Source: Blastomyces gilchristii SLH14081
Lineage: Eukaryota > Ascomycota > Eurotiomycetes > Onygenales > Ajellomycetaceae
Assembly: GCF_000003855.2 (NCBI RefSeq)
Contig: NW_003101679.1
Span: 3,794,889 to 3,858,888 of the forward strand
DNA length: 64,000 nucleotides
Reading direction: 5' to 3'
The notes beneath the pieces are model-generated. The model was given only the letters and a program-made list of their open reading frames with translations, was not told the origin of the DNA and made no database searches. Every line of letters begins with the position of its first letter. The stretch's first letter is position 1. Positions 4,371 to 51,763 of the stretch are shown here, piece after piece. Made by a program: the position numbers and the translations under genes.

Positions 4371-5710
4371 TTATTATTATTATTATTATTCTTCAATTAT
4401 AGATGTATGCAGTCAGAGACTATGACATCTACCTGAGAACTTTTAGTTCTCAGGGTTTTTCCTATGTCTGTAAAGTTAACTATTATACATTCATCAATTT
4501 CAGATATACAAAATCAAAAAATTCCAGCTCAGAATACAAAAACTGTTTACAAATTGCAGTGTTTTAACATCTTTTAATACTTTGAAATCATTTGACAATA
4601 TCATGACAAAAGAAAAGAGAAAAAGAACACACTCTCAAAGATAGACACATTAAATAGATAGATAGAAAGAAATTGAAAGAAAAAGATAAAGAAAAAGATA
4701 AAGTAAAGAGAGACTATAATAAAACAAATTATTAAAAGAGAGTGTATAGCTGTTTTAACAGACTATATCTGATTGATTTTCTTCTCTTCATATTCAGATA
4801 ATTCTGAATTTAATCATTTTCTTATAGCTGCTTGAGTTTCTGATAGAAAGTCTATTAAGTATTTAATTCCTGTCTCAGTTGAGAATAAGAATCTTATATT
4901 TAATTAATTTAGATTATACTTCTCTTTCAATCTGGCTCTGAGACTATTGTATAATGCACAGTGTATTACAATATACTCAGAATTCTCATTTATATTATAG
5001 AATGAGCATTCTATTGAGTCAAATCTATCATCAAATCTTTGTATATAAGATTTAAAATAGTCATATTCTAGTTTCAGCTGTATTATAGATGAGAATATTT
5101 TCTTTTTATATTTAATTGAATAAGATTTTCACTTGGATTTTATTTCAAATTTTGAATAATGTATACTCTTCTTTTATTTCTGTCAGCTTTTATTTCACTT
5201 GTCTAAATAAGATTCTTTTATTTTTCTCTTCATAAAAGACTAGAATATAATTTTTTGAATAGATCTGCTTAATTCTGTATTCTTTTTTACAGCTGAATCA
5301 GTCAATTCATTATCATGAATATTCATATGAGTAGAAACTCAGTGTAGATGAATTATCAGCTTTGATATTCTTCTCTTTTGAATTTTTAAAACAGAGTTTA
5401 AGATCAGTTTAAGATTCATTTAATTATTATAAATCTGACTATTTCTAAGTCTTTTTAAAGCAGCTTGACTATCAGAGAATATTCATATCTCTTTCAAATA
5501 ATTTCCTCTTTTATGAGATTTTATTTCAATGAGTTTGAAAGCTTTCACTATTATAAAATAGTTCAGTATCAAAGACTTCATATTCAGAGTCTAGATTTCA
5601 GAAATCTGAGATAAAATTAATATTATCTTCAGTATAAGCAATGTCTGCATCTAATCTATTCAAGTTCTCATTTTTTGAGCTATCTGAATAAATCAGAATG
5701 AAGTCTTTTA
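4371..5710 (-). pseudogene. LINE ORF2 3' part (RNase H to C-terminus) and 3' UTR in chimera A
   Basis: Homologous to 39469-40805 of the full-length LINE but on the minus strand. It covers the RNase H region, the C-terminal Cys/His segment and the 3' UTR. A perfect 10-bp stem (CCTGAGAACT with AGTTCTCAGG) lies at 4432-4454, near the TAA-repeat tail. Trp codons are replaced by TGA and no frame is open. Confidence 0.85.
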
Positions 5711-6380
5711 CTACAGGTACTAGTCACCTGCAGAATGCATCTTAAGCTAATTATATTTAACTCTCTATAATTAACTGATCACTGCATTCATTCTCTTGAG
5801 TCAGCTACTAATTTCCAGAGATGTTAGTTAGTGACTGTCACTGCTCACTTGATGATATACACATCAAGCTTTCAGTTGCTGATCTCAGTCTCATTAGATG
5901 CTCATAGGCCTATCAATCAGCTGTTGTGACCTCATCTCATGTTAGAAACTAATTATAGACTTGATGACTTCAGTTCTCTCTGTCAGTATTAGAGATTAAC
6001 AGTGAGCTTGCAGACTCTAGTCTATCAGAGTGCTCTGTCTAGAGCCTAGATATGTATCTAGACCTGCTAGTCAGATGATTTTCAAAATCATTTCCTGTAT
6101 TTAAGAGAAAGCTAGGCTTCAATGACAGTTCTAGTTTTAGAGACTTACTTAAGTAGTGTATAATCACTACATTAGGCTTGACTCTATATTATTAGAACCT
6201 TGACAGGTGCACAGTAGAATAGTGAGACATTGACATTTTATATCAGCTCTGATAAGTGTTTACAGAATCTCACTTAACTAGTGACTTGACTTACAGTAGA
6301 GAGTTCTACCCTGCACTAAGTCTTACTAATTAGACTCAGCCTCTATTACATGGGGGCTTTCATGGGTAAGAAGTGACAGA
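5711..6380 (-). repeat. Non-coding body of chimera A
   Basis: About 670 bp shared with chimeras B (9611-10280) and C (to 50656). No reading frame is conserved between copies. The 3' boundary is always ctgtag, after which LINE sequence starts at different points. It is contiguous with the tRNA-like head, so it looks like the body of a Pol III-type retrotranscript. Function unknown. Confidence 0.8.
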
Positions 6381-6461
6381 TGCCAGTGATGGGATTCGAA
6401 CTCACACATCTCTAATGTGTGTGGCCTTGATTACCAGTCTTATCAACTGGGCCACGCTGGC
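6381..6461 (-). pseudogene. tRNA-derived head of chimera A
   Basis: Minus strand: 5' GCCAGCG can pair with 3' CGYTGGC followed by A, as in an acceptor stem with discriminator. A box (GTGGCCCAGTTGG) and B box (GTTCGAATCCC) are both present. Between them lie a fragment like a Thr anticodon region (CTGGTAATCAAG) and a 7-bp hairpin (CACACAT/ATGTGTG) directly before the T arm. The D and anticodon arms do not fold normally, so I call it a tRNA-derived Pol III promoter and not a working tRNA. Confidence 0.75.
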
Positions 6462-6978
6462 ATATTCTCTACATTACTTATGTGATTTAATCTGTGATGT
6501 AAACACTGATAAAGAATCTTAACATCAAGATGAAGAATAATGAGATAACTGATTCTTAAGATGAGAATGAGATGAAAGTGATTACTTAAGTAACTTTTAT
6601 ATTCACTTTGTAAAAGATAATGTTTTCTGATAATACTTTTTAATATTGCTTTTTAATAACACTTTTTGATAATACTACTGTTAATTTTGAATAGATTGAC
6701 TAATAATTTAAATATCACAGATTTAAAACATTGCTAATATGATTTGTATCTTCTCTAAATAATAATAATAATTTCATGACATTTAATAAACAAACAAATC
6801 AGTCATATCACTGAATATAATACAGAATATTAGAACACAGTGAAGTTCAATATATAAGATTACTATTCAGACTCTTCAATTGTATCAGATAATTGATCAT
6901 TGAGTGTAACACTCTGATTGAGAAAAGATTCAGATATTGAAACTTTCTGATATAAAGTAAACTCAGTTGAAATATATA

Positions 6979-7392
6979 ATTGATTTACTGTTTCAGTTTT
7001 ATAAGACAACAAAGACAGTCTTAATCACTTATACATCAATACTGCAGTCAGTCTGATAAGTGTATAACAGTTTATTTACTTATCTTAAGAAGCAGTTGAA
7101 TCACTTAAAAAGAAATTCAGTCTGAGATAATACTATAGCACAGACTATTATTACTGTAAGAAATAAACTGGCATATTATCACAGCAAAACTGAACAATCT
7201 TTTACAGAGTACTATACTATAGCAGCTCTACTAGATTTCTTCTGTTGAGTTAATATCTACACTTCTCAAGATTGAACAGAGAAGAAATAAGACTTATATG
7301 TTAAATTAGCTCAAGACTACTATAATACTAACTATCAGAGATTTAAATAAGCAGATGTTCAAGATATGAAGACAGTGAAATACAATTCTCTA
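6979..7392 (+). pseudogene. hAT transposase remnant (C-terminal catalytic region)
   Basis: The frame starting at 6979 reads IDLLFQFYKTTKTV, then YNSLFTYLKKQLNHLKRNS, KLAYYHSKTEQ and YYTIAALLD, followed by KLAQDYYNTNYQRF. This order (FY-x-x-T, then a YNSLF-type helix, then K-L-x-x-YY-x-K-T-E, then YAAALLDP-like) matches the second half of fungal hAT transposases. Stops inside are mainly TGA or TAA at expected Trp/Gln positions. The DD-E residues and the dimerisation domain are not confidently placed, and the N-terminal half was not recovered. It explains the 8-bp TSD of the surrounding element. Confidence 0.72.
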
Positions 7393-8285
7393 GTAAGTAA
7401 TAATCTTTGATAATACTTTATATCACATAGAACTATAATACTAACTTTGAAACAGAACTTATATACATTGATTACAACTGAAAATCAGGTAAAACTATAT
7501 GCTTATAAAACTGAATTTGACTGCTATCTTCAAGATAATCTGATGAATTTACACATTAAATCAATTCTAGAGTTATGAAAAATTGTTAAGAGTACATATT
7601 TAACTGTTATACTGATAATATATGATATTCTGATAATTTCATTGACAGAGATGAGAATAGAGTGAAAGTTCAACTCAAGTCAAGATATTTATCACTATCA
7701 CTGAGAACAATTATAAGAAGAAATAATCAAGAAACTCATGATTGTAAAATATGAAATCATTAGACAGTTTAATACCTCTGATCACAGTATATTAGAGAAG
7801 TTTAGTTTTCATAAGAAAGTGAAGAATAAACTTATATAAGAATGTATTTAGTTGTTTCATAAGTATTATCAATAATCATTATCAAATTCTGATTATATAA
7901 GCAAACACTGAATAAACTGAATGAGACTGATTTTAATCTTCAGTCTCAGTCTCATTATGATTTTGAAAGAATGATTATCTTTCACAGTTTATTCTGAGAA
8001 ATTACTCTCATTTCACTGTTCTTGAATTAAATCTGATCATTTTTCATATCATTTCTCTCAGAAATGATTCATTTTCAGATTTTTTTAAGACTTGGTTCTG
8101 ATGGGACTCACACTAAGAAATGTATGAGACTAGACTAAATGAGATCAAATGTGAAATTCATGATCCCGCCGGCCAGTCTAATCATTATCAGAATCACTTT
8201 CAGTGAAATCTTTATTTGCAGTTTCTGAGAAAAGAGAGCTCTGAGATTGAAATTCTGATTGATCATTTCTGAATTCATGTCTAGA

Positions 8286-9610
8286 TTATTATTATTATTC
8301 TTCAATTATAGATGTATGCAGTCAGAGACTATGACATCTACCTGAGAACTTTTAGTTCTCAGGGTTTTTCCTATGTCTGTAAAGTTAACTATTATACATT
8401 CATCAATTTCAGATATGCAAAATCAGAAAATTCCAGCTCAGAATATAAAAACTGTTTACAAATTGCAGTGTTTTAACATCTTTTGATACTTTGAAATCAT
8501 TTGATAATATCATGACAAAGGAAAAGAGAAAAAGAACACAGTCTCAAAGATAGACACATTAAATAGATAGATAGAAAGAAATTGAAAGAAAAAGATAAAG
8601 AAAAAGATAAAGTAAAGAGAGATTATAACAAAATAAATTATTAAAAGAAAGTGTATAGCTGTTTTAACAGACTATATCTGATTAATTTCCTTCTCTTCAT
8701 ATTCAGATAATTCTGAATTTAGTCATTTTCTTATAGCTGCTTGAGTTTCTGATAGAAAGTCTATTAAGTATTTAATTTCTGTCTCAGTTGAGAATAAGAA
8801 TCTTATATTTAATTAATTTAGATTATACTTCTCTTTCAATCTGACTCTGAGACTATTGTATAATGCATAGTGTATTACAATATACTCAGAATTCTCATTT
8901 AAATTGCAGAATAAGCATTCTATTAAGTCAAATCTATTATCAAATCTTTGTATATAAGATTTGAAATAGTTATATTCTAGTTTCAGCTGTATTATAGATA
9001 AGAATATTTTCTTTTTATATTTAATTAAACAAGATTTTCACTTGAGTTTTATTTCAAATCTTGAATAATATATACTCTTCTTTTATTTCTATCAGCTTTT
9101 ATTTCACTTATCTAAATAAGATTCTTTTATTTTTCTCTTTATAAAAGATCAGAATATAATTTTTTAAATAGATCTGCTTAATTCTGCACTCTTTTTTACA
9201 GCTGAATCAGCTAATTCATTATCATGAATATTTATATAAGCAGAAACTTAGTATAGATAAATTATCAGCTTTAATATTCTTCTCTTTTGAATTTTTAAAA
9301 TAGAGTTTAAGATCAGTTCAAGATTTATTTAATTATTATAAATCTGACTATTTCTAAGTCTTTTTAAAGTAGCTTAATTATCAGAGAATATTCATATCTC
9401 TTTCAAATAATTTTCTCTTTTATAAGATTTTATTTCAATGAGTTTGAAAGCTTTCACTATTATAAATAGTTCAGTATCAAAGACTTCATATTCAGAGTCT
9501 AGATTTCAGAAATCTGAGATAAAATTGATATTATCTTCAGTATAAGCAATTTCTGTATCTAATCTATTCAAGTTCTCATTTTTTAAGCCATCTGAATAAA
9601 TCAGAATAGA
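8286..9610 (-). pseudogene. LINE 3' part in chimera B
   Basis: Minus-strand counterpart of about 39477-40805 of the full-length LINE: decayed RNase H region, C-terminal Cys/His segment and 3' UTR. The conserved stem-loop is at 8341-8363 and the TAA tail begins at 8286. No open frame. Confidence 0.85.
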
Positions 9611-10280
9611 CTACAGACACTAGTCACTCACAGAATGCATTTTAAGCTAATTATATTTAATTCTCTATAATTAACTGATCACTGTGTTCATTCTCTCAGA
9701 TCAGTCACTAATTTTCAGAGATATTAATTAGTGACTGTCACTGCTCACTTGATGATATACACACCAAGCTTTCAGTTGCTAATCTCAGTCTCATTAGATG
9801 CTCATAGACCTATCAATCAGCTGTTATAACCTTGCTCTGTGTTAGAGACTAATTATAGACTTGATGACTGCAGTTCTCTCTATCAGTATTAGAAATTAGT
9901 AGTAAGCTTGCAGGCTCTAGTCTATCAGAGTGCTCTGTCTAGAGCCTAGATACATGTCTAGACCTGCTAGTTAAGTGGTTTTCAAAATCATTTCCTGTAT
10001 TTGAGGGAGAGCTAGGCTCTGATGACAGCCCTAGTTTTAGAGACTTACTTAAGTAGTGTATAATCACTACATTAGGCTTGGCTCTATATCATTAGAACCT
10101 TGACAGGTGCACAGTAGAATAGTGAGATATTGACATCTCATGCCAGCTCTGATAAGTGTTCACAGAATCTTGCTTAACTAGTGACTTGACTTACAGTAGA
10201 GAGTTCTACCCTGCACCAAGTCTTACTAATTAGACTCAGTCTCTATTACATGAAGGCTTTCATGAGTAAGAAGTGGCAGG
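9611..10280 (-). repeat. Non-coding body of chimera B
   Basis: About 670 bp, clearly homologous to 5711-6380 and to 49958-50656, ending in ctgtag at 9611-9616. It contains several short palindromes around TCTAGACATG. No protein-coding frame is shared with the other copies. Confidence 0.8.
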
Positions 10281-10361
10281 TGCCAGCGGTGGGATTTGAA
10301 CCCACACATCTCTAATGTGTGCGGCCTTGATTACCAGTCTTACCAACTGGGCCACGCTGGC
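10281..10361 (-). pseudogene. tRNA-derived head of chimera B
   Basis: Minus strand GCCAGCG ... CGCTGGCA gives a perfect 7-bp acceptor-like stem plus discriminator A. A box GTGGCCCAGTTGG and B box GGTTCAAATCC are intact, and the T arm (GTGGG/CCCAC) is perfect. As in copy A, the middle of the molecule is rearranged with an extra 7-bp hairpin, so no anticodon can be assigned safely. The DNA continues into the body without a T-run terminator. Confidence 0.78.
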
Positions 10362-10375
10362 AATTCATGTCTAGA

Positions 10376-12548: not shown

Positions 12549-12573
12549 TATTTCTTTCTTTCTTTCTTTCTTC
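12549..12573. repeat. CTTT microsatellite
   Basis: About six tttc units in a row followed by ttcttc. Confidence 0.85.
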
Positions 12574-12959
12574 TTCTCACAATTATATTATACTATGAAG
12601 ATTATTCTTAGTTTATCTTACTCTCTCTTATCTTCAGTAAGATTAGTATTCTATCAGTTATAATAGAAAGCTTTTAATAAGAAAAGTTCTAATTTCAAAG
12701 ATATCTTATTCACAGTATATCAAGAATATCAGTGATTTATTTATTATATTAATATCAGTAATATCAGTAATAACAGCAGCAGTAACAGTAAAAATAACTA
12801 ATAACATCTCTAAGTGTACTCATATTATCACTGTAAAAGCTCAGAAGAAAGAGATAAATAGCTGTCTGAATATTCTGATAAAGCAGTTCAGTAAATAAAT
12901 AATATATAAGTACTGTTATAAGTATATTTTTTCTCATCATTTGAATGTTACTTACAATA

Positions 12960-14570: not shown

Positions 14571-17500
14571 ATGGAATTGTCGCGACAGGACTATCCGGCC
14601 ATTGTGGTGAGTTAAAACGGCTCGGGAAAATGGAATTATGTCTCTTTCCCCCCCCCCCCCCTCTTTGTTTGTTGCCCTTGTCTGTTGGGCGTTGTTGCTA
14701 ATGAACAATGGTTCCTTTGTTTAACAGGCCTCGTTAACCCCTACCCAAGCTTCAGCCGTCCTTACCGAACGCATACGATTAATTAGCAAGATAAACTCAG
14801 ATATCGCGGACTGGCTTTCGGTACTTCTTTTTCCATTTTCTTTTCGCCTCTCAATCGGGGGTTTCCTGAGCGGAATTTCCACCGAGCGCAAACTTACAAT
14901 CCAAACCTAGGAACGACGACGGGTGGAAGACGCATATGTTTTGGGCCTTCGTAGGCTCGCACGACGGCAATCGCAGGATGCATCCGCAGCATTGGGGTAA
15001 GCAATTGGTGCGATGCGAAATCGATGTTGAATTGGTTATTGACAAATTATTTTTATATCTATCTATTAGGGTCTTTCAAACACCATGGCAACGCATCCTC
15101 ACTGCCACGGAATCATTAGCGGAATCCCATGAAACCCTTTCGCACGGGATCGAGGCGGACGTTGAACGGCCTTTAAAGGAATATGCTACTAGGAATAACG
15201 ATATGCAATCCATCTCAACGATGCAACAGGATTTGGCGAATCTGGCAAAGGAGCTTGAGTCTGCGAAGAAGAAGGCCGACAAATTAAAAGATAAAGGCCC
15301 AAAGGCTGCGGCGAAAACATCCAGTGCCGTTTTAGCTGCGCAGGAGGTGGCGCAACAATGGGAATCGAGGGCACCTTTCGTTTTTGAACAGCTTCAGGCT
15401 GTCGATGAGCACCGCCTGAACCACCTCAGAGATGTTCTCACCCAGTTCCAGACTCACGAGGCAGATCACATCGAAAGAACTAGACGATATACTGAAAGTT
15501 GCCTTAATGCGCTATTAAGCGTTCAGACCGACGAAGAGATTACAGCGTTTACTACGAAGGTAACAGGCGGCAGGGCTCCTGTCTCGAGAACAACAACGAC
15601 GGATGCTGCAGCGACAACCTTACCCCCTTCGTCAGGCCAAATTCCAGCTGCCACTGGAGAACCTTTACGTCCCCCACCTAGAATCCATGACGATGCGGCT
15701 AGCCAGCGTTCCGGTCGATCGAACAAGGGCAGACTTGGTGCTGGTGAGTCATCGCTACTGAAAACTGACATAATTGGAAAAGGACTAACAAAATAATAGC
15801 ACCCGAGCCCGTCGGGCACATGAGGCTTGGTGGCCTGAAACGGTTGGGTACTGTCATGGGCCGAAGAAAGAGTATTGTACATCATTCAACTGGGAACTCA
15901 GGTTCTCCGGAGAGGAAATTCCGGTCCCCATTCACCGCGTTCCGAAAGTCGGAGTCAACTCGAAAACTTCCAGCAAGTTGAAATGCAACATAACCCCAGC
16001 GATTATCTGGCGCCAATTACCTCCAGGGATGATCTGTCGCTTCGCCGCCCTGCTTCCTCGCCTAGAGAGACAGCCCGCAGCGACTCGATTTCAGCATCGC
16101 ATCAACGACCAACGACTCCCAACGGTGCTGGTGTTCCTGAAGAGAGTTCTATCCCAGAGAGTACTGGGAAACATGGCAACTCCATGGAGCAAGCTCCGGC
16201 TACAGCCCAAGTATGATTACCAGCTCCGCAAATTTTCACGCACTGTTTTGCTGACTTTCCACTTTTCCACAGTCACCTAGAATAGATGCTGAGGGATATT
16301 CCGAGCGGCCGGCTAATCTTGACGAAATAACGCGACTTCAAAAAGAAGCTGCTGCTGCGTACGTTTTCTCTCTTCTTTGCTAGGAAATTAAGTGACTTAC
16401 AGATGATTAGTGCCGAAGAGCCCGGTCTAAACCTCACTATTCGTGACCAACCTATCGAGGAGGACGAGGGTGAAGCGAAAATGGCTTTGAACGAGGTGGC
16501 GAACACCTTGCGATTGGTGAGCCGTGCCAGTTCTCCCTGTTTAGGTACTATGAAGCTAACCCCATTATTATAGAAAGCACAACAATCCGGCCTATCTCGT
16601 GGGGTTGGAACGTTGCGTGGACGCCGAGAGGTTAGGAACACCATTTTCGTCCCGAATCCACCCAGCGAAGATTCAAGCTTGAGCCCACTTCCCGGTCTAG
16701 TTGCGGGACCACCACCCGTTTCCCCATCGCACGTTCCCAAGATGGTCGCATCTCCTCCTAGTAGTCACGATGACCACGCTTTGTCGGATACAACGTCCAT
16801 CCATTCGTCACAAACCCTTCATAGTCTGTCAGGACCTGTTTCACACCCTGATATGCCCGAGCCTGGCCTTAATGCATCCATTGTGGAAACGGTCAATGCC
16901 TGGTTCTCTGATGGCGCTGTTACCCGCTCCTTCGTTGTTGGAGAACTGGCTCTGGCGTATAACTCGACCACGAGCCCCCCTTCGGATCCTGAGCTTGTCC
17001 GCCTAAATAATTTCGACTTATTAGAAAAAGTCGCGGCAAATCCTATCCTCGCCACAGAAGCCGGACACTCCTTGAAAGGCAAGGAGAAGGAAAATGGCTC
17101 CGGTAACGAGGAAAGGAAGGGGGAATATCTAATCTCGCTTCCCAGTATCGCACGATCGACTCCCACGGTTGCTTTCAAATATCAAATACATCTCAATCCT
17201 TCTAACTTCTCGGCCTATTGCCCTATTATATTTAACCCTGTTTGGAATTTGGAAGAATTCCAAGCCAGCGTTATCATTACTTATTCAATAAACCCCAACT
17301 TCATTTCTGCAGAGTCATCCACACCTATCACACTTAAGAATCTCGTGCTCACCGTCAACCTGGACCTATCCCCACAAGAAGACGAAACCACCAAGCAGCC
17401 TCGCGAAGTTGCTCGCGCCACGGGAGCAGTCATGTATCCCAACACTGGCGCTACGTTCCGCCGCAAAACATCAGCCGTCACATGGAGAATGTCAGAGTTG

Positions 17501-17809
17501 GAAGTAACCACGGCAGGCGACCAACGGTTCCTCGCTCGATTTTCAACAACGGTGAGCGGACCCCGCAAGGGGAGAGTCGATGCCAAGTTCGACGTCCTGA
17601 ATGCCAACAGCGGAGACAGGCTGGGTATCAGCGTTCAGACTTCTGGCCATAAGCAGGACAAGAAGGCCGATGACCCGTTTGCTGATGAGTCTCTGGCGAC
17701 GGGTAATGGGACGACGGAATCACCAGAACCCAGCCCCGCATCGAAGACATGGGAAGAAGTCTCTACACGACGAATACTAACGGTGGGGCGATATATCTCT
17801 TTCGGATGA
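14571..17809 (+). CDS. syp1: Syp1-type F-BAR/mu-homology endocytic adaptor (muniscin)
   Basis: Eight exons: 14571-14606, 14728-14820, 14911-14996, 15070-15743, 15800-16210, 16273-16358, 16411-16516, 16574-17809; all introns are GT-AG and short (52-121 bp). The protein is about 908 residues if one frameshift is ignored. Residues 1 to about 260 form the F-BAR/EFC domain (MELSRQDYPAIV start, VFQTPWQRILTATESLAESH, Lys/Glu-rich coiled coil). The middle is Ser/Pro-rich. From about residue 597 to the end is a mu-homology domain (SIVETVNAWFSDGAVTRSF). In yeast, Syp1 marks early clathrin endocytic sites, bends membrane, binds cargo and affects septins. Odd: exon 5 changes frame near 15963-15966 (CGAAAACTT); one A fewer would keep the frame, and reading on as given hits a TGA within a few codons. 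This may be an assembly error, a real mutation or an unrecognised splice. Confidence 0.93.
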
Positions 17810-20712: not shown

Positions 20713-21197
20713 CAATTCATACAACTGCTCCACCACGAACTCGCTCGATTTTTCGAATAAGAACCCGCCAATAGATCTATCGAAAAGCCCTCGATCATAC
20801 AAGCATTTTGACCCCATCGCCGACCGCATACCCCGTGTGGTGATGGAGCTATCCAGCCAAATGTGAACCAGATGTTGTTTGAAACTCCTGTGTGAGATTA
20901 TCCTCTGTTCACCCCTACCACACCACAACCCCGGGGCAAAGTGTCATACAACTTGTAAGGTGAAGAGACCTAGCCATATACACCAATCTTCTTGATTTTG
21001 GAAGATCCCGACCTAAAACCCTGTCTATCATTGATGTTCCAAAACATCAACGCCAAGTCCCACCCACGTACCGCCCTTCCCAATCTGGCCCACCTCCGGC
21101 AGAAAGATACAAAAAGATACCTTGGCAATACTATCAAGCACATCACCAATGGACACATCTAAAGTGCAACCTTCACGTCTGTTGTTGGTGTATCAAG

Positions 21198-33274: not shown

Positions 33275-34805
33275 AACAACCGCTCCACCACGAACTCGCT
33301 CGATTTTTCGAATAAGAACCCGCCGATAGATCCATCGAAAAGCCCTCGATCATACGAGCATTTTGACCCCATCGCCGACCGCATACCCCGTGTGGTGGTG
33401 GAGTTATCCAGCCAAACGTGAACCAGACGTCGTTCGGAACTCCTGCGTGGGATTATCCCCCATTCTCCCCTACCACACCACAACCCCGGGCCAAATTGCC
33501 ATACAAATTATAAGGTGAAGAGACCTAGCTGTATGCACCAATCTTCTCGATTTTGGAAGATCCCCGATCTGTAGTTGTGGAGATATCTGAGGTGCGACCT
33601 CCGCGAAAACCCTGTCCATCTTTGATGTTCCAAAACACCAACGCCAAGTCCCACCCTCGTACCGCCCTTCCCAATCTGGCCCATCCCCGGCAGAAAAATA
33701 CAAAAAGATATCTTGGTGATAATATCAAGCACATAATCAACAGACAATGAGTCAACAGCACATCAACAACTATAAAATCAGTATATCTCAAGGTCTGACT
33801 GAGCCTTTGATCCCTGCACAGTGAGATATATTAAATCTAGTTTTAATATCTCAATATTCAATAGATTCTGCAAGAGATTGAGAACAGCAACACTAGGTTT
33901 CTATTGAATTTGAGAATTAACTCTATATTGATATAATCATTGACAAAGTCTTCTATTTTGAGATATAAATAACCAGTTTCTCTACATCCTGCTGGCAATA
34001 TTTACATTATTATATAGAAACAGACTTATATTCTCTATAATATCAAGACTCTGAAGAGGGAAAGTCTTGATAGAGAATATATAGTAGTGTATATCTTAGC
34101 AGTTTCTATCTCATTCTTCTGCAGTAGTTAATGCAAAAAAAAAAAGATCTTAGAAATAGTTTTTTACTTCTCTTGAAAAAGTAAGGTGTTTTTCTCTGAG
34201 TTTTACATAATATTCTTACAAAGAATTAAAAACAGAGTTATTTTCTATCATAATTTCATATTCTTTTAAGTAAGAATTACTTTTTCAGTGACTGAAGAGC
34301 TTTCATTAATACTTAATTCTTTTTTACACTCTTTATTAACTGATTTGAGTTGTACACTTATTGTGTGAGGAGAATTGAATGATTTAGAATAAAATTAAAT
34401 AGTTTTAATCAATTTCTCTGTAAAAAATTGATTTATTTTTTGTCAGTTTTTCTCTCAAAAACTGTCATATTATCTGATTTACTATCAATTGATATCATAC
34501 TTTTCCTCACTGTATCCCAAGAAAGAGATTGTAAAGATTTTATTAATTTATCTTAAAAATCAATTTTAGTTTATTAGATTCTCTTCAAAAATCTAACCTA
34601 GTTACTGAACTAGAGTGAAAAAAATCAGGTGTTTTATACACAAAAGTCTGCTATTCTTCTTTTGAAATAGTCTGACCAACTTTTCAATTGAAAACAGACT
34701 TAGAAATCTCTTAATTGAAACAGTCTGATCAACTTTTCAATTCAAAAGAGTTTAATAAATATCTCAATTGAATTAGTCTGATCAACTTTTCATTGAGTAA
34801 GAACA
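33275..34805 (+). promoter_or_regulatory. LINE 5' UTR with a CpG-rich, undecayed first 440 bp
   Basis: Bases 33277-33700 keep normal GC and CpG (e.g. cgctcgatttttcg, ccaacgccaagtcccac), then the sequence turns AT-rich. The same module starts LINE copy 2 at 20713. LINE transcription normally starts at the first base from an internal promoter, so this module is the candidate promoter. The short frames in it (NSLDFSNKNPPID and minus-strand frames) match nothing I know. Confidence 0.6.
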
Positions 34806-36425
34806 ATGAGTTCAAAAGTACACTTAGTTGATGTGAAAAAAGATGCTTTCTCAAATGCTATTTCTGAGATTGAAATTCTGAAGAGAAGAAAGAAAGAAGA
34901 AATAGAGAAATAACAAGTTCTTGAAATACAGAAACTTGAAAAAGCAAGTAAAATTCTTGAAAAGCAGTGTCTGAGTGAGATGAATGAAGAAGTTCAGTTA
35001 ATTCTTCATGCTCAGGCTAGACAACTACAGGAAGTGATCAAGTTCAAACTTGGAATTTCAAACACAGTTCAAAAAACTTTGAAAATTTCTAATATAATCA
35101 CTGACTCTTCAGTTTGCTCTTCTTTCTTTTCTACTTCTTCTTCTTCTTCTTCTTTAAATCAGAAGAAAACATATGCTTAAGCAGCTGAATCTGCTGTCTC
35201 TAAACCTGCTATCTCTAAATCTGCTATCTCAAAACCTGCTCAAAATTCTGAGAAAACTGAGAAGAATACTGCTCATACTTCTAGTGATAGAAGAGTGGAG
35301 AAAAAAATGCAAAAAGAGAAAAATCTTCAAATCTTCAGAAATAGAAGACTTATTCTCAAAGTCTCAAATCAGGACATATTGCAGAGAAATAAGCTAAACT
35401 CAAACCTCATTTTCAGAATTAGAAATGAAATCAATCAGCAGTTCTTTTCTCAGTTAATGACTGATATTGAAGTTCAAAAATCAGTTATAGCTTCAATTGA
35501 GCCATTCTTCTTTGAAAACTTCATTATTCTGACTACAATGTCTGAATTCAGTGCTGAATTTCTTATTCAGAATGAGAATCTCTGAAAATCAGCAGTAGAA
35601 TCTTTGTTAAACACAATAATTCTATCTGAGAGAGATGAAAAGTGAGATAAATTCATTCTTCATAATATTTCAGTTGAAATTTTTGACTGTGAAGAAGGAA
35701 TACTACTTCTTAAAAATGAATTAGAAGAATACAACTCTATTCAACTGAGAAAGAAGCCTGTATGACTAAATTCAATTGAGTTCAGACAAAGCAGAAGAAA
35801 TGCCTCTGTTCTAGTATATACAAAGACAATAGAACAGTCAAAGATCTCTGAAGTAAGAGTAGCAGATTTGAAAATGAGAGTTCATGAATACAAAGACTCA
35901 AGAATGAATCTCAAAGCTTAAACACAGTGTTCAAACTGTCAAAGATATAGACACTTTGCAATCTTCTATTTCAGAGACTCAAAATGTGCATTCTGTGTCA
36001 GAGATTATAAAACTAGTGAGTATAAATATGAAACATGCTCAAAAAGAGGTGAAATATGTCAACACACTCTGCTTAAATGCTCTAATTGCAAAGAAAAACA
36101 TGCATCTAGCTCAAAAGAATGTATATTTGCTTCAAGAACTCAAAAGAACTGAAGAAAAGACAAAGCTCAGAGTAAACCTAGAACTGAAGAGAATAGTCAA
36201 GTCAGTAAACTCACAACTGTAAGCTTAAAAAGAAGAAACTCTCAACTGTCTAAGTCTTCAAACTCCAATTCTTCAGCTAAATATAAACAGAATTTGAATC
36301 CTCAAACTTCTGTTAAGATTAGAGAATTGAGAAATGACTCTGATGATAAACTAGATATAATGCAAGCAGTTGAGATTTCTACTTTTCAGAACAGTTATAA
36401 TCTACTATCTAATGATAGTGATTAG
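34806..36425 (+). pseudogene. LINE ORF1 (gag-like, three zinc knuckles)
   Basis: ATG 34806 to TAG 36423-36425, a multiple of three (539 codons) with only point stops inside, so the length is intact. N-terminal Lys/Glu-rich coiled coil, then a Ser-rich linker. Near 35928-36110 come three Cys/His clusters (QCSNCQRYRHF, KCAFCVRDY, LLKCSNCKEKH), as in Tad1-clade ORF1 proteins that coat LINE RNA. Stops are TAA at Gln (e.g. 34909) and TGA at Trp. ORF2 starts 23 bp downstream. Confidence 0.85.
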
Positions 36426-36448
36426 ATTCTACTCTACTCTCTTTTAGT

Positions 36449-39400
36449 ATGAATATACAACAAAAACAATAAAAAAAGTTTAAAAACTCTTCAAAAATCA
36501 CATTTATTCAAAATAATGTGAATAGAAACTCAAATTGCATTTATTCTTGTCTTCAAATTGCATTTGAATAAAAAGTTGATTTTATACTGCTTCAGAAGCC
36601 TAATTTTAATGCTGAGCAAAAAGATGTCATTTCTCATTCAAGCTACTACTGCTTTTTACCTCAAAAGTCTGAGATAAAGTCAAGAGTAGTGATCTATGAA
36701 AGAAAGAGATCAAGATATTAATTTAATCTAAGATTTGATATCATGTCTGACCCTGATATTCTGGTGAGTGACATTATAGATAAAGAAAATGAGTTTGATA
36801 CTATACAGCTTATAAATATCTATAATGAAAAGTCATTGAAGGAATATAATAATATTTGAACAATTGATAGAGGATTTCTGAACATAACTTCATCAAGAAA
36901 CTCTATAATTGTAGGAGACTTCAATACACATCATTTCTGATGAAATTCAGAATGCAAGAGAGCAGTGAGAGCTGATAATCTGATTGAATGAATCTTTGAG
37001 CATTCAATAGATTTAGTTAATAAGTCTGATCAATAAACATTCTTTAGAAAAGACATGAAACAGAAGTCTATTATAGATCTAATCTTCATATCACAAAATC
37101 TAATGAAAAGAAGACTTGTAAACTGGTTTATTGATTCAAATGAGATATCAGAATCAGGTTATGAGATTATTCAATTTGATATTGAACTGAGTGAAAAACA
37201 AATGAGTGAAAATCCTCTTCTCTCTAATCAGTATAACTTTGAAAAAGCTGATTGAAAAGCAGTTGAAGAAAGCATAAAACTGTTAAAATCTGAAAGACAG
37301 AATGAGCTATATTGGAATTCTGGTCAAGATATCTCAAATGAAATGCTTGAGAATAGAGTGAAGCTTATTACATCTATTATTCTAACAAGTGTTAGAGATA
37401 ATATTTCAAAGAGAAAATCTTCTGAGTATTCAAAACCTTGATGAAATGAGAATATCTCATCTAAAAGGAAAGAATTAGCTACTGCTAGAAGAGATTGAAA
37501 GAATGATGTAATATCTGATAAAGAGTTCAAAGCTGTCAGAAATGAATATTTTTCAGATATTAAAAGAGTTAAAACAGACTGCTGGAATAAATTTCTTGAA
37601 GAAGCACAAGAAAAGAAAGTTTTTAAAGCTTTTAACTATACTAAAACAAGAAGTGTAGCAAAACTTCCAGCTCTAGAATATGAGTTTCAGAATGAATCAT
37701 ATACAGTAAACTCTTTTGAGGAAAAATGTCAAGCTTTCATGAGAATTCTCTTTCAGAACTCACCAGATTCAGATTCAGATTCAGAGGAAGAGAATATATC
37801 ACTTCTCAACTACATTGATGAAAATGACTGGGAATGGTCTGATCTTACATAAGATGAATTAGAGTCAGCTATCTTCTCAAGTTCTGTTAAAACTGCTGCA
37901 GGTCCTGATTCAATTAATCACTTGATTATTCAGAATACATATTTCTACTTAAAGAATGAATATTTTGAGCTCTTTTTCAATCTCTTGAAAAATGAATATC
38001 ATTCTGAATGCTGAAGAGAAGCCACTGAAGTGATTCTTACAAAATCTAATAGAAAAACTTCAATTCCTAAGTCATATAGAGTAATATCTCTATTGAACTG
38101 CCTAGAAAAGGTTTTAGAAAAGATAATAGCTACTTAACTATCTTTTATAAGCTCTATAGATGATTCTCTTTTATTCAGAGAATAAATGAGAGATAGAAAA
38201 CATTGTTCTGTAATTGACACTATTCTCTCAGTTATTCATGATATTCAAATAGCAAAGCATGAGAGTCTGGTCTCAACTGCAGTTTTTATTGATATNNNNN
38301 NNNNNNNNNNNNNNNNNNNNNNNNNNNNNNNNNNNNNNNNNNNNNNNNNNNNNNNNNNNNNNNNNNNNNNNNNNNNNNNNNNNNNNNNNNNNNNNNNNNN
38401 NNNNNNNNNNNNNNNNNNNNNNNNNNNNNNNNNNNNNNNNNNNNNNNNNNNNNNNNNNNNNNNNNNNNNNNNNNNNNNNNNNNNNNNNNNNNNNNNNNNN
38501 NNNNNNNNNNNNNNNNNNNNNNNNNNNNNNNNNNNNNNNNNNNNNNNNNNNNNNNNNNNNNNNNNNNNNNNNNNNNNNNNNNNNNNNNNNNNNNNNNNNN
38601 NNNNNNNNNNNNNNNNNNNNNNNNNNNNNNNNNNNNNNNNNNNNNNNNNNNNNNNNNNNNNNNNNNNNNNNNNNNNNNNNNNNNNNNNNNNNNNNNNNNN
38701 NNNNNNNNNNNNNNNNNNNNNNNNNNNNNNNNNNNNNNNNNNNNNNNNNNNNNNNNNNNNNNNNNNNNNNNNNNNNTGTCAAATGATTAGGAGTATGATT
38801 AAACTTCAAGTTGAATTTTAAATATCACATTCAACAAAGAACTGTCAAGGCAGAAAGACTATTGAACAACATAATCAGACTATTAAATACAGAGAGAGGT
38901 CTATCCTTCCAGGCTATGAGACAGTTATATATAGCCTGTATTACATCAGTAGCTGATTATGAAGTTCAAGTTTGATGAAATAATCAAGAGAATTTCACTG
39001 AACTCTTTCAAAGTCTGTAAAACAGAGCCTTGAGAAGAATTCTGAGAGTATTCAAATCATCTCCTATTAAAGCAATGGAAATTGAAGCTTCAATTCCTTC
39101 TTCTGCTATTAGATTTGAAAAGGCCTGTATGAACTATGCTCTGAGAGTTGTAAAGATGAGCTCAAATCATATAATCAGAGAAAGAGTCTCTTCTTCATTT
39201 TCATCAATTAACTCTGATAATGAACTGGATTGAAATAGATTTCTTGATTGAAATGAAAATAACTCTTCAAAGAAAATGCCTTCTCAACTGTACAGACTAT
39301 GCTCTCTGATTAAAAATCAATTTTCTTCTTTAAATGTTGAAAAAGTTGATCATGAGAAGTTATCTCTCTGAAGAGAAAAGCTTGAATCTCTTATAGACTT

Positions 39401-40415
39401 ACAAATAAGTGAACTATTAAAAGAGAAAGAATATGAACAGCATTCAAAGAGAATTTCTATAATTAATATAAAAGACTCTATTCTGATTTATTCAGATGAC
39501 TCAAAAAATGAGAACTTGAATAGATTAGATACAGGAATTGCTTATACTGAAGATAATATCAATTTTATCTCAGATTTCTGAAATCTAGACTCTGAATGTG
39601 AAGTCTTTGATGCTGAACTATTTGTAATAGTGAAAGCTTTCAAACTCATTGAAATAAAATCTTATAAATAAGAAAATTGTTTGAAAGAGGCATGGATATT
39701 CTCTGATCATTAAGCTGCTTTAAAAAGACTTAGAAATAGTCAGATTCATAATGATTAAATAAATCTTGAACTGGTCTTAAACTCTATTTTGAAAATTCAA
39801 AAGAGAAGAATATCAAAGCTGATAATTCATCTGCACTGGGTTCCTGCTCATATGAATATTCATGACAATGAATTGGCTGATTCAGCTGCAAAAAAGGGTG
39901 CAGAATTAAGCAGATCTATTCAAAAAATTGTGTCCTGGTCTTTTATAAAGAGAAAAATAAAAGAATCTTGTTTAAACAAGTGAAATGAAAGCTGGCAGAA
40001 ACAAAAGAAGAGTATACATTATTCAAGATTTGAAACAAAACCCAAGTGGAAATCTTGTTCAATTAAATGTAAAAAGAAAATATTCTCATCTATAATACAG
40101 CTGAAACTAGGACATGGCTATTTCAAATCTTATATACAAAGATTTGATGATAGATTTGACTCAATAGAATGCTTATTCTGCAATACAAATGAGAATTCTG
40201 AGCATATTGTAATGCACTGTGCATTATACAATAGTCTCAGAGCCAGATTGAAAGAGAAGTATGATCTAAATTAATTAAATATGAGATTCTTATTCTCAAC
40301 TGAGACAGGAATTAAATACTTAATAGACTTTCTATCAGAAACTCAAGCAGCTATAAGAAAATGGCTAAATTCAGAATTATCTGAATATGAAGAGGAGGAA
40401 ATCAATCAGATATAG
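36449..40415 (+). pseudogene. LINE ORF2 (endonuclease, reverse transcriptase, RNase H)
   Basis: ATG 36449; stop TAG 40413-40415. The AP-endonuclease part includes IIVGDFNTHHF (about 36905-36937) and IIDLIFISQNL. RT starts near 37850 (AAGPDSINH, then TAVFIDI at the gap edge). After the gap comes the RT thumb region. RNase H reads HLHWVPAHMNIHDNELADSAAKKGA (39829-39903), and a C-terminal CX2C...HX4C segment (CLFCNTNENSEHIVMHC) lies near 40180. At least 15 Trp codons are TGA. The gap size is not a multiple of three relative to the flanking frames, so its stated length is approximate. Confidence 0.85.
38296..38776. other. Assembly gap (481 N)
   Basis: Hides the core of the LINE RT. The paralogue at 49590-49810 shows what follows the left edge (IKDAFNHVSKSK ... 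SSISSVLFAIYT). Confidence 0.99.
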
Positions 40416-40805
40416 TCTGTTAAAACAGCTATACACTCTCTTTTAATAATTTGTTTTGTTATAGTCTCTCTTTACTTTATCTTTTTCTTTATCTTTTTCT
40501 TTCAATTTCTTTCTATCTATCTATTTAATGTGTCTATCTTTGAGACTGTGTTCTTTTTCTCTTTTCCTTTGTCATGATATTATCAAATGGTTTCAAAGTA
40601 TCAAAAGATGTTAAAACACTGTAATTTGTAAACAGTTTTTGTATTCTGAGCTGGAATTTTCTGATTTTGCATATCTGAAATTGATGAATGTATAATAGTT
40701 AACTTTACAGACATAGGAAAAACCCTGAGAACTAAAGTTCTCAGGTAGATGTCATAGTCTCTGACTGCATACATCTATAATTGAAGAATAATAATAATAA
40801 TAATA
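40416..40805 (+). other. LINE 3' UTR with conserved stem-loop and TAA tail
   Basis: Contains pyrimidine-rich CTTT/CTAT repeats, then a 10-bp perfect stem (CCTGAGAACT/AGTTCTCAGG, 40724-40745), then TATAATTGAAGAATAATAA leading into the tail. The same elements occur at the end of all six LINE 3' ends in the window. Such 3' hairpins are recognised by some LINE reverse transcriptases; here that role is inferred. Confidence 0.7.
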
Positions 40806-40817
40806 ATAATAACTTTG

Positions 40818-41844: not shown

Positions 41845-42984
41845 TGTGATTCAAAGATTGCTTGAGTCAGCATACGATTACAGATGTACACTTCCTGCTC
41901 ATATGAATATTCATGGCAATGAATTGGCTGATTCAGCTGCAAAAAAGGGTGCAGAATTAAGCAGATCTATTCAAAAAATTGTGTCCTGATCTTTTATAAA
42001 GAGAAAAATAAAAGAATCTTGTTTAGACAAGTGGAATGAAAGCTGGCAGAAACAAAAGAAGAGTATACATTATTCAAGATTTGAAACAAAACCCAAGTGG
42101 AAATCTTGTTCAATTAAATGTAAAAAGAAAATATTCTCATCTATAATACAGCTGAAACTAGGACATGGCTATTTCAAATCTTATATACAAAGATTTGATG
42201 ATAGATTTGACTCAATAGAATGCTTATTCTGCAATACAAATGAGAATCCTGAGCATATTGTAATGCACTGTGCATTATACAATAGTCTCAGAGCCAGATT
42301 GAAAGAGAAGTATGATCTAAATCAATTAAATATGAGATTCTTATTCTCAACTGAGACAGGAATTAAATACTTAATAGACTTTCTATCAGAAACTCAAGCA
42401 GCTACAAGAAAATGGCTAAATTCAGAATTATCTGAATATGAAGAGGAGGAAATCAATCAGATATAGTCTGTTAAAACAGCTATACACTCTCTTTTAATAA
42501 TTTGTTTTGTTATAGTCTCTCTTTACTTTATCTTTTTCTTTATCTTTTTCTTTCAATTTCTTTCTATCTATCTATTTAATGTGTCTATCTTTGAGACTGT
42601 GTTCTTTTTCTCTTTTCCTTTGTCATGATATTATCAAATGGTTTCAAAGTATCAAAAGATGTTAAAACACTGCAATTTGTAAACAGTTTTTGTATTCTGG
42701 GCTGGAATTTTCTGATTTTGCATATCTGAAATTGATGAATGTATAATAGTTAACTTTACAGACATAGGAAAAACCCTGAGAACTAAAAGTTCTCAGGTAG
42801 ATGTCATAGTCTCTGACTGCATACATCTATAATTGAAGAATAATAATAATAAACAGATGTACACTGACTTCTTATATATTGTACACTAACTTAATTAGCG
42901 GCTGCTATGGCCTCTTTACACTCGTAAGCAAGTTCGGAAGCGGCCGCGTTATTATCCGACGGTCGTATGTTCTTCCGAACCACA
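41845..42984 (-). repeat. Gypsy-2 5' LTR, split by a LINE fragment
   Basis: 41845-41891 plus 42865-42984 give the same 167 bp as 26250-26416. The outer 120 bp keep CpG sites (cgtaagcaagttcggaag, ccgacggtcg), more than the other LTR. Confidence 0.87.
41892..42852 (+). mobile_element. 5'-truncated LINE copy in the gypsy-2 LTR
   Basis: Starts at the base matching about 39842 of the full-length LINE (inside RNase H) and ends in the TAA tail. Flanked by a 12-bp duplication, acagatgtacac, at 41880-41891 and 42853-42864. Very close to the full-length LINE with few changes (its 42263-42466 frame MHCALYNSLRARLKEKYDLN is open to the ORF2 stop), so it is among the youngest insertions. Stem-loop at 42775-42797. 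Confidence 0.93.
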
Positions 42985-45900: not shown

Positions 45901-46535
45901 GTTATTATATGAAAGTGTTGAATCTTCTAGAGACTATATAGTTTATATCAAACTTCTGTAGTCTGATTCAGATCACTGATAACATAGTAATGAAGCTCTG
46001 AGATGTCTGCAACTAAGCAGAAGCCTTTATGACAAGTACTAAACAAGATTAAGAGAACTGAAATAATATTCATCAAGACCTCACTGAGTAATATAAGATA
46101 GAAGATCTGATATGATTGAATCTTAAGAATATACAGATCACATACTCATCTTACACACTGAATTACTATTATACAAAGTATAAAGTGATAGAAGTTCTAG
46201 ACAGTCACAACTATTATCTTAACACATCATTAGAAATTCATGATGTCTTTTATACAAGCTTACTCTGCTGTGCTGTCACTGATCTGTTCTCTTCTCAGCT
46301 GACTTTTAACTGACAGCCGCCAGAGATCATAGAAGAAGATAATGAACTTGAATGAGAGATTGAAGATATTCTTGATAAGAGATCTCACAGCTGCAGCTGA
46401 CAATATTTTATAAAATGAGTCAGCTATGATCACTTAATCTGAACTCTGAGCTCTGAGTTATCTGAGACAGCAGCTCTTGACTGATGAGAACTACATATTG
46501 ACAACTCTATATCACTTCTGAAAAGAAGGGGCTAA
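42989..46535 (+). pseudogene. Gypsy-1A pol (protease, RT, RNase H, integrase, chromodomain)
   Basis: RT active site AYLDDILIFTDEF at about 44043-44081 (YLDD intact, 44046-44057). RNase H KADFSDYVIEKTILYY near 44490. Integrase core: VLIIVN*LSKDVI near 45510 (Asp changed to Asn), IVSD*DC near 45640, HSEINDASEQ near 45735. The C-terminal frame 46116-46313 (KYKVIEVLDSHNYYLNT) continues into a chromodomain at about 46350-46480 (EIEDILDKRSHS, QYFIK*VSYDHLI*, Trp lost to TGA). The stop TAA is next to the polypurine tract. Chromodomains in this position direct integration to heterochromatin in characterised chromoviruses. Confidence 0.85.
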
Positions 46536-46805
46536 TGTGATGAGCTGCGCCTGATCAATCATATAGACTATTTCATTACACTTCATAGATTTCACTGAAA
46601 GCTTCAATTCTCAGTCACTGATTCTCAGCTGAAAAACTTATGAAATTTCTATTCTTCTACTCTGAAGCTTTATTATGTACATATATAAATATTCACTCTG
46701 ATTACTGATTCCTGCACTTTCTCTTTCTTTTCTTCTCTAACATTTTTCACTTTGTATTATAAGATCTATATATGGTACTGATCTATTCAGCGTAGGCTTC
46801 TTACA
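46536..46805 (+). repeat. Gypsy-1A 3' LTR
   Basis: 270 bp, TGTGATGAGC...TTACA, same length as the 5' LTR and followed by the TSD ctatc. The two LTRs differ by scattered C/T and G/A changes. Confidence 0.9.
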
Positions 46806-46810
46806 CTATC

Positions 46811-49800: not shown

Positions 49801-49812
49801 TACACTGTAATA
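46811..49812 (+). mobile_element. LINE copy 2, continuation (ORF1 3' half to mid-RT)
   Basis: Resumes the LINE broken at 24393: ORF1 second half with zinc knuckles (about 47230-47420), then ORF2 endonuclease and the first part of RT (INIKDAFNHVSKSK near 49590, SSISSVLFAIYT near 49800). It ends inside RT, where gypsy-1B sequence starts at about 49813. More decayed than the full-length LINE. It bridges the RT segment hidden by the 481-base gap in the other copy. Confidence 0.83.
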
Positions 49813-49957
49813 GATATATTAATGAACAATTGAAGAATCACGCGAAACAGAAGTTTCATTCATGAATAAAAGCATGTGAATCAGTATGGTAAACATCTGA
49901 TAACATTATCAAACATCTTGACATCCTGTTTCAAGACACTGTCATACAACAGAAAGT

Positions 49958-51763
49958 AGGTGCGTGGGTTCGAATCTCACCGCTGACACCTGCCACTTCT
50001 TACCCATGAAAGCCCTCATGTAATAGAGGCTGAGTCTAACTAGTAAGGCTTGGTACACAGTAGAACTCTCTACCGCAAGTCAAGTCACTAGTTAAGTGAG
50101 ATTCTGTGAACACTCATCAGAGCTGATATAAGATGTCAATGTCTCACTATTCTACTGTACACTCATCAAGGTTCCAACAATATAGAGTCAAGCCTAATAT
50201 AGTGATTATATACTACTTAAACAAGTCTCTAACTAGAGCTGTCATCAGAGCCTAGCTTTCTCTTAAATATAGAGAATGATTTTAAAAATCATCTGACTAG
50301 CAGATTTAGACATGTATCTAGATTCTAGACAGAGTACTCTGATAGACTAGAGTCTGTAAGCTCACTGCTAAGCTCTAATACTGATAGAGAGAACTGCAGT
50401 CATCAAGTCTATGATTAGTCTCTAACACAGAGTGAGATTATGACAGCTGATTAATAGATCTATGAGCATTTAATGAGACTGAGATCAGCAATCAGAAGCT
50501 TGATATATATGTCATCAAGTGAGCAGTGACAGTCACTAACTAACACCTCTGGAAATTAGTGGCTGGCCTGAGAGAACAGACGCGGTGATCAGTTAATTAT
50601 AGAGGGTTAAATGTAATTAGCTTAAGATGCATTCTGCAGGTGACTAGCGCCTGTAGAAGGCATGAATATTCTCTGATAGTCAAGCTGCTTTAAAAAGACT
50701 TAGAAATAGTCAGATTTATAATAATTAAATGACTCTTGAACTGATCTTAAACTCTGTTTTGAAAATTCAAAAGAGAGAAATACTGAAGCTGATAATTCAT
50801 CTACACTGAGTTTCTGCTTATATAAATATTCATAGTAATGAATTAGCTAATTCAGCTGTAAAAAAGAGTTTAGAATTAAATAGATCTATTCAAAAAATTA
50901 TGTCCTGATCTTTTATAAAGAGAAAAATAAAAAAATCTTGTTTAGATAAGTGAAATAAAAGTGAATAGAAATAAAAGAAGAGTATACATTATTCAAGATT
51001 TGAAATAAAACTCAAGTGAAAATCTTGTTTAATTAAATGTAAAAAGAAAATATTTTCATCTATACTACAGCTGAAACTAGAATATGACTATTTCAAATCT
51101 TATATACAAAGATTTGATGATAGATTTAATTCAATAGAATACTCATTCTGCAATGTAAATGAGAATTCTGAGTATATTATAATACACTGTGCATTATATA
51201 ATAGTATCAGAGTCAGATTGAAAGAGAAGTATAATCTAAATTAATTAAATATGAGATTCTTATTCTCAACTAAGACAGGAATTAAATACTTAATAGACTT
51301 TCTATCACAAACTCAAGCAGCTATAAGAAAATAGCTGAATTCAGAAATATCTGAATATGAAGAGGAGAAAATTGATCAGATATAGTCTGTTAAAACAGCT
51401 ATATACTATCTTTTAATAATTTGTTTTGTTATAGTCTCTCTTTACTTTATCTTTTTCTTTCTATTCTTTTCTATCTATCTATTTAATGTGTCTATCTTTA
51501 AGACTGTGTTCTCTTTTCTTTTATCATAATATTGTCAAATGATTTCAAAGTATCAGAAGATGTTAAAATACTGTATTTTATAAACAGTTTTTGTATTCTG
51601 AGCTGGAATTTTCTGATTTTACATATCTGAAATTGATGAATGTATAATAGTTAACTTTATAGATATAGGAAAAACTCTGAGAACTAAAAGTTCTCAGGTA
51701 GATATCATAGTCTCTGACTGCATACATCTATAATTGAAGAATAATAATAATAATAATAATAAT
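49958..51763 (+). mobile_element. Chimeric retroelement C (body fused to LINE 3' end)
   Basis: Flanked by a 10-bp duplication, aacagaaagt, at 49948-49957 and 51764-51773; gypsy-1A has the uninterrupted site (acaacagaaagtattg near 25433). It starts inside the tRNA-like head (gtgcgtgggttcgaatc, the B box), continues through the body to ctgtag (50651-50656), then LINE from the base matching about 39688, over 200 bases further than in A and B. Ends with stem-loop (51675-51698) and TAA tail. Decisive evidence that the fused structure moves as one unit. Confidence 0.92.
50657..51763 (+). pseudogene. LINE ORF2 C-terminal part in chimera C
   Basis: Decayed RNase H (the His-Trp-Val-Pro motif is altered), C-terminal Cys/His region and 3' UTR of the LINE. 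Many stops. It lacks the RT and endonuclease, so it cannot support its own movement. Confidence 0.82.

What the first reader, a model, noticed from the sequence alone, without database searches (positions are those of the whole stretch)
4371..51763. A family of chimeric retroelements: one tRNA-headed body fused to a LINE at variable points
Three elements (4371-6461, 8286-10361, 49958-51763) share a tRNA-derived head and a 670-bp body that always ends in ctgtag, followed by the 3' part of the Tad1-like LINE. The LINE junction differs: about 39469, 39477 and 39688 in full-length LINE coordinates. A fixed 3' boundary on one partner with a variable 5' entry point on the other is what repeated template switching by the LINE reverse transcriptase would give. 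Known parallel: MINE (WEIRD-MGL) elements in Magnaporthe. In this genome the body begins with a Pol III promoter, a distinguishing feature.
Basis: partly seen in the sequence, partly recalled or inferred. Interest (0 to 1): 0.88.

Follow-up and report, generated by a model that had tools for sequence, protein, structure and literature searches.

The report
RNA repeatedly fused to a LINE
In this fungal genome one tRNA-headed RNA-like unit has been joined again and again, at many different but sequence-marked points, to the tail part of a jumping element, which shows that such hybrid elements are made afresh rather than copied from one ancestor.

Summary
I read 127 of 147 listed genomic copies of the body (a lower bound). 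In 122 the body runs into the same LINE at an exact point, 70 distinct points in all; L144 does so with 4 unassigned bases, L140 is doubtful, and 3 have no LINE at the body's end. The body stops at one base (...CCGTAG, the foot of a predicted 9-bp hairpin). 22 of 24 testable chimeras are single insertions with 10-16 bp target duplications.

Decisive: four bodies that differ at only 4-8 of about 750 positions have four different LINE entry points (0.3-4.6 kb of LINE) and four different target duplications. A single ancient fusion is excluded.

No founder (body inside a LINE at its own junction) was seen among 89, though for 40 only 40 nt upstream were held.

This is the Magnaporthe MINE (WEIRD-MGL) kind of element, with a tRNA-like head and another motif. 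RT template jumping leads; RNA cleavage plus ligation is the main rival.

The parts
5711..6462 (-). E1 body: tRNA-derived head at the right end, fixed 3' end ...CTGTAG at 5711
   Evidence: L012
4371..5710 (-). E1 LINE 3' part with (AAT)n tail; entry at LINE position 39469
4357..4370 (.). E1 target duplication, 3' copy
6463..6476 (.). E1 target duplication, 5' copy
9611..10362 (-). E2 body (752 nt), fixed 3' end CTGTAG at 9611
   Evidence: L009
10281..10361 (-). E2 tRNA-like head
   Evidence: Rfam RF00005 35.5 bits
8286..9610 (-). E2 LINE 3' part with (AAT)n tail; entry at LINE position 39477
8273..8285 (.). E2 target duplication, 3' copy
10363..10375 (.). E2 target duplication, 5' copy
49958..50656 (+). 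E3 body, 5'-truncated: body positions 52-752 only, A-box part of the head missing
   Evidence: L039
50657..51763 (+). E3 LINE 3' part with tail; entry at LINE position 39687/39688
49948..49957 (.). E3 target duplication, 5' copy (AACAGAAAGT)
51764..51773 (.). E3 target duplication, 3' copy
33276..40813 (+). long LINE copy used as coordinate reference (5' end inferred from pieces that start at 33275/33276; ends in (AAT)n); no body at its 5' side
41892..42852 (+). ordinary 5'-truncated LINE copy without body (starts at LINE position 39841)

Best explanation
The body is a discrete, structured non-coding RNA of about 750 nt, with a tRNA-like head at the 5' end and a terminal hairpin at the 3' end. 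It is repeatedly joined to LINE sequence during LINE retrotransposition. Reading proposed: the LINE enzyme nicks the target, starts copying LINE RNA from its (AAU)n tail, stops at a site that leans to A-W-A|U-Y, jumps to the 3' end of the body RNA, copies it to the tRNA 5' end, and the hybrid is inserted as one unit. SHOWN: fixed body end, 70 LINE entry points, junction motif, insertion as one unit with target duplications, repeated independent fusion. INFERRED: that the body exists as a free RNA, that Pol III makes it, and that the joining step is an RT template jump and not RNA ligation.
For: 122 of 127 copies read have the body joined to LINE at an exact point, 70 points. Bodies L074, L080, L081 and L086 differ at 4-8 positions, gaps included, but enter the LINE at 36195, 40480, 39387 and 36255, each with its own 12-14 bp target duplication. 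Target duplications of at least 9 nt bracket head to tail in 18 of 20 (control 5 of 960) plus 4 of 4. Same-junction copies are not closer in body than others (mean transversions 2.36 against 2.29; 1245 of 2000 label permutations at or below). Junction motif on 64 sites: A at -3 in 56 (p=2.7e-16), T at +1 in 51 (p=7e-15), TC at +1+2 in 29 against 7.5% (p=2.7e-16), AWA|TY entire in 21 against 1.5% (p=9.5e-23); 11 of 29 AAA|TC sites in the LINE take 46 of 114 mapped copies. A Magnaporthe precedent, WEIRD-MGL, is read by its authors as template switching at motif-marked sites (PMC2104539).
Against: No solo source gene for the body was found (20 of 147 listed places unread; lists capped). Most joins carry no unassigned bases, whereas some non-LTR reverse transcriptases add bases when jumping (recalled); the exceptions are L103 (1 base), L104 (3), L144 (4) and L140 (24). 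A short motif on the donor fits an RNA cleavage site at least as well as an RT pause. The sample of ordinary 5'-truncated LINE copies is too small (5 sites; 1 of 5 reads A|TC) to say whether the motif marks RT stops in general. 43 of 64 sites do not fit the whole motif. 2 of 5 young copies with a same-junction partner have it as nearest body, so some copying of chimeras is not excluded.
Confidence: 0.62

Rival explanations
1. RNA-level joining. LINE RNA is cut at A-W-A|U-Y, the new 5' end is ligated to the 3' end of the body RNA (for instance by a tRNA-type ligase), and the hybrid RNA is then retrotransposed as one template.
For: Short motif with information at -3 to +2 only (positions -10 to +9 looked at); body end fixed to the base; unassigned bases in only 4 joins and no microhomology excess (LINE base -1 = G in 4 of 64 against 15%). 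For human U6/LINE-1 both ligation and template switching are named in PMC13174262 (passages seen).
Against: No RNA data here; no enzyme with this specificity is known to me; the fungal precedent was interpreted as template switching.
Confidence: 0.28
2. Single ancient fusion, later internal deletions in the LINE part.
For: Some junctions recur (39660 in 10 copies).
Against: Bodies 4-8 differences apart carry LINE parts from 0.3 to 4.6 kb with separate target duplications. Deletions would have to end at the same body base each time. Same-junction copies are no closer in body.
Confidence: 0.02
3. The body is an independent SINE that inserted into LINE copies at a preferred target; read-through transcripts from its internal promoter then spread as chimeras.
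For: The LINE junctions have a sequence preference, as an endonuclease target would, and the head carries A and B boxes.
Against: 0 of 89 bodies have upstream LINE leading to their own junction (for 40 of the 89 only 40 nt upstream were held). 2 of 18 chimera target duplications start with TC and one more with ATC, against 33 of 64 LINE junctions, though the AAT tail blurs where duplications start. Each junction would need its own founder and same-junction copies should cluster, which was not seen.
Confidence: 0.05
4. Mixed: some chimeras formed de novo, others copied from a chimeric master transcribed from the head.
For: Hot spots hold 2-10 copies (114 mapped copies at 64 positions; about 113 positions expected if uniform, 105 if spread over all A|T sites); 2 of 5 young copies have their same-junction partner as nearest body.
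Against: Transversion distances show no clustering by junction, although power is low (about 2 transversions per pair).
Confidence: 0.3

Closest known systems
MINE (WEIRD-MGL) chimeric retroelements of Magnaporthe grisea (PMC2104539, text parts 1-3 of 5 read)
   Same: Full-length non-coding RNA copy at the 5' side, 5'-truncated LINE at the 3' side, same strand, target duplications, many junctions with recurrent ones, a short motif at the junction, no solo copy of the RNA found.
   Different: Here a tRNA-like head with A and B boxes; 122 exact fusions at 70 entry points (there 31 MINEs among 33 chimeras, 28 sites); motif AWA|TY instead of GCC|A/U. Whether body and WEIRD are related could not be tested.
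U6/LINE-1 and tRNA/LINE-1 chimeras of mammals (PMC13174262, passages only)
   Same: Small structured RNA at the 5' side of a 5'-truncated LINE, mostly sense orientation, target duplications.
   Different: The 21 tRNA/LINE-1 chimeras reported there are typically tRNA halves; here the tRNA is the head of a 750-nt unit and one unit dominates.
tRNA-derived SINEs with a LINE-like 3' tail
   Same: tRNA head, internal promoter boxes, mobilised by a LINE.
   Different: The body has no LINE-like tail of its own; the tail is a LINE piece whose length varies from copy to copy. An ordinary SINE with a LINE-like end does exist in this genome (L099).

Membership tests
MINE-type chimeric retroelement | 5' part is a full-length copy of one non-coding RNA with constant 3' end | tested here: met
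   body end at the same base in 104 of 107 copies; head begins within the first 4 body positions in 87 of 89; longest stop-to-stop frame 54 codons in body L080. That the RNA exists was not tested.
MINE-type chimeric retroelement | 3' part is a 5'-truncated LINE, variable entry point | tested here: met
   70 exact entry points; LINE part 251 nt to 6.2 kb by position
MINE-type chimeric retroelement | flanked as one unit by 10-20 bp direct repeats | tested here: met
   22 of 24 with at least 9 nt, range 10-16; none found for L031 and L040
MINE-type chimeric retroelement | junction consensus GCC|A/U | tested here: not met
   AWA|TY instead; the LINE is a different one
MINE (WEIRD-MGL family proper) | sequence homology to WEIRD and MGL | not testable with these tools
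   no Magnaporthe sequence held
tRNA-derived SINE | tRNA-like head with A and B boxes | tested here: met
   Rfam tRNA 34.3-35.5 bits in five copies; A box in 67, B box in 35, both in 32 of 87 heads, 0 of 17800 shuffles with both
tRNA-derived SINE | own 3' tail, occurs without LINE body sequence | tested here: not met
   no solo copy with target duplication among 127 read; L108 has no LINE but no duplication was found
Tad-clade LINE (partner) | RT phylogeny in the Tad clade | not tested
   only an RNase H domain was seen

The most novel reading that the evidence does not exclude
The body is a tail-capturing SINE. It carries its own promoter (tRNA head) and an RNA 3' end fixed by a terminal hairpin, but no tail that the LINE enzyme recognises; at every round it takes a fresh LINE 3' end, by joining at AWA|UY in LINE RNA. 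Each chimera could serve as a source again, because its transcript is trimmed back to the hairpin; that would explain why no solo gene is found here or, for WEIRD, in Magnaporthe.
Probability: 0.25. Interest if true: 0.85.

Novelty: new variant of a known kind. Interest (0 to 1): 0.62.

Why it matters
It is a second large natural record of LINE-RNA fusion in a fungus, with enough little-altered copies to show outright that fusions recur and to read a short rule at the donor side. That makes an open question testable: whether such chimeras arise by reverse-transcriptase jumping or by RNA ligation. The motif differs from the Magnaporthe one, so it may belong to the LINE enzyme or to a host RNase rather than to the captured RNA.

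Tried and rejected
Single ancient fusion: rejected. Body as 5' end of the LINE: not seen at five LINE 5' starts. Body inserted into LINE, then read-through: no founder in 89, with the limit told above. Microhomology between body end and LINE: no excess, G at -1 in 4 of 64. Guide pairing of the body RNA to the LINE sites: 152 of 1000 shuffles score as well, dropped. Chimeric-master amplification as the general rule: not supported, not fully excluded. Motif as endonuclease target: A content just upstream differs only weakly (25 of 54 against 109 of 174, p=0.04) and duplication starts are blurred by the AAT tail, so this rests mostly on the missing founders. Organism: one protein search, best named relatives Talaromyces and Penicillium at 51-52% identity, better hits unnamed; not identified. 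Rows corrected by hand: L025 and L038 (body ends altered), and L017, L027, L078, L087, L097, L098, L122, L147 (junction in a part of the LINE withheld in the window, labelled by their first 12 letters; L097 checked by BLAST). On checking, L140 and L144 were taken out of the entry-point and motif counts (the earlier counts were 124 fused, 72 points, 66 mapped). In one search five rows that only stop at the withheld part and one duplicate were left out of the five plain truncations.
Full report
WHAT IS THERE. The window holds three elements made of the same body and the 3' part of one LINE. E1 (4371-6462) and E2 (8286-10362) are on the minus strand, E3 (49958-51763) on the plus strand. The body is 752 nt in E2 and starts with an 81-nt tRNA-like head (Rfam tRNA 35.5 bits; ARAGORN finds no tRNA gene). 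E3 lacks the first 51 nt. All three have target duplications (14, 13, 10 bp).

GENOME-WIDE. Six searches with body or head sequences and one with a little-altered body list 147 distinct places after merging (49, 80, 18). Each search scores only 40 of 213-331 first-look candidates, so this is a lower bound. In 122 the body joins the LINE at an exact point, 70 distinct points; 6 of these points lie in a part of the LINE withheld in the window. L144 joins the LINE after 4 unassigned bases; L140 has 24 unmatched bases and then a partial match to the LINE 5' region, and is left open. Three have no LINE at the body's end: L099 (an ordinary SINE sits in the body at position 501 with its own duplication; its real body end was not read), L066 (body cut at 740 by another repeat) and L108 (body followed by TTTTATAAGC, no LINE, no duplication found).

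FIXED END, MOVING ENTRY. Of 104 fused copies tabulated, 55 end CTGTAG and 38 CCGTAG; the other 11 end in close variants. Copies differ almost only by transitions (mean 93.6 transitions against 2.3 transversions per pair of 86 bodies), as repeat-induced point mutation would give (inference), and body G+C runs from 0.34 to 0.565. In one little-altered body, L080, the last base closes a predicted 9-bp hairpin (pair probabilities 0.87-0.94) and the whole folds at z = -3.2 against only 20 shuffles; its longest stop-to-stop frame is 54 codons. Four joins have bases not clearly from either partner: L103 (1), L104 (3), L144 (4), L140 (24).

FUSION RECURS. Among 26 bodies with G+C above 0.5, L074, L080, L081 and L086 differ pairwise at 4-8 positions, gaps included, yet enter the LINE at 36195, 40480, 39387 and 36255. 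Each has its own 12-14 bp duplication. No two of 89 copies share an upstream flank (26 or more of 36 bases). So these are separate insertions made from almost the same body and different LINE portions. Across 86 bodies, pairs with the same junction are no closer than others (2.36 against 2.29 transversions; 1245 of 2000 permutations at or below). Against this, 2 of 5 young copies with a same-junction partner have it as nearest body, so occasional copying of a chimera remains possible.

THE JUNCTION RULE. 64 entry points could be placed on the window's LINE without doubt. Information is confined to five positions (made with two further sites that were later dropped): A at -3 (56 of 64), A or T at -2 (54), A at -1 (44), T at +1 (51), C or T at +2 (51). 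The whole motif AWA|TY stands in 21 of 64 sites against 1.5% of LINE positions (p=9.5e-23); 43 sites depart from it somewhere. TC at +1+2 stands in 29 of 64 against 7.5% (p=2.7e-16). Eleven of the 29 AAA|TC sites receive 46 of 114 mapped copies. 114 copies at 64 positions compare with about 113 positions if uniform and 105 if spread over all A|T sites, so there are hot spots. There is no excess of matching bases at the join. The LINE copy used as reference is itself altered by transitions, which probably hides some TC as TT (inference).

MECHANISM. Shown: a constant unit with two fixed ends, joined to LINE sequence at many marked points, inserted as one unit with LINE-type target duplications and tail, many times independently. 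Inferred: a free body RNA, probably from the Pol III-type head (A box in 67, B box in 35, both in 32 of 87 heads; 0 of 17800 shuffles with both). A single TTTT lies inside the L080 body, which would be a weak terminator for fungal Pol III (recalled), so Pol III origin is not proven. The join is either an RT template jump (my first choice, with the Magnaporthe precedent) or RNA cleavage and ligation before reverse transcription (strong second, because the motif looks like a cleavage site and most joins are clean). For human LINE-1 hybrids the same two mechanisms are named side by side (PMC13174262, passages).

COMPARISON. Closest are the MINE elements of Magnaporthe (PMC2104539, parts 1-3 of 5 read): WEIRD RNA plus truncated MGL, 31 MINEs among 33 chimeras, 28 junction sites, six sites shared by pairs, consensus GCC|A/U, no solo WEIRD found. 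The present family shares the structural features tested and differs in head, motif and scale. Searches of the paper library for further fungal cases returned only PMC2104539 and PMC3978060 (the latter seen in the listing only); that library lacks most subscription journals.

Noticed in passing
L099 (C8:1007677-1008717): An ordinary tRNA-headed SINE with an end resembling the LINE's (TATAATGGAAG then (AAT)n) is inserted in a body copy with the duplication CTGCAGTCATCA: a conventional SINE/LINE pair beside the chimeras.
   Followed up: partly
L108 (C2:3347006-3348046): A body copy intact to ...CCCGTAG but followed by TTTTATAAGC and no LINE; no target duplication found. A solo gene, a different partner or a rearrangement.
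   Followed up: partly
L140 (C18:341259-341409): Body followed by 24 bases that match neither partner, then a partial match to the LINE 5' region: possibly a three-part chimera or a diverged LINE 5' end.
   Followed up: partly
body 3' end, L080: The last base of the body closes a predicted 9-bp hairpin, which could set the RNA's 3' end.
   Followed up: partly
window 41892-42852: Plain 5'-truncated LINE copy 99% identical to 39841-40800 of the long LINE: probably recent ordinary LINE activity.
   Followed up: no
window 14936-17809: Two long open frames; the second (16613-17809) has relatives with Pfam PF10291 (best hits 82-86% identity, unnamed; named fungal ones 51-52%).
   Followed up: partly
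window 33276-33746 and 20721-21155, L050, L008: LINE 5' pieces begin at the same base, and a 471-bp piece of this region recurs as a unit.
   Followed up: no
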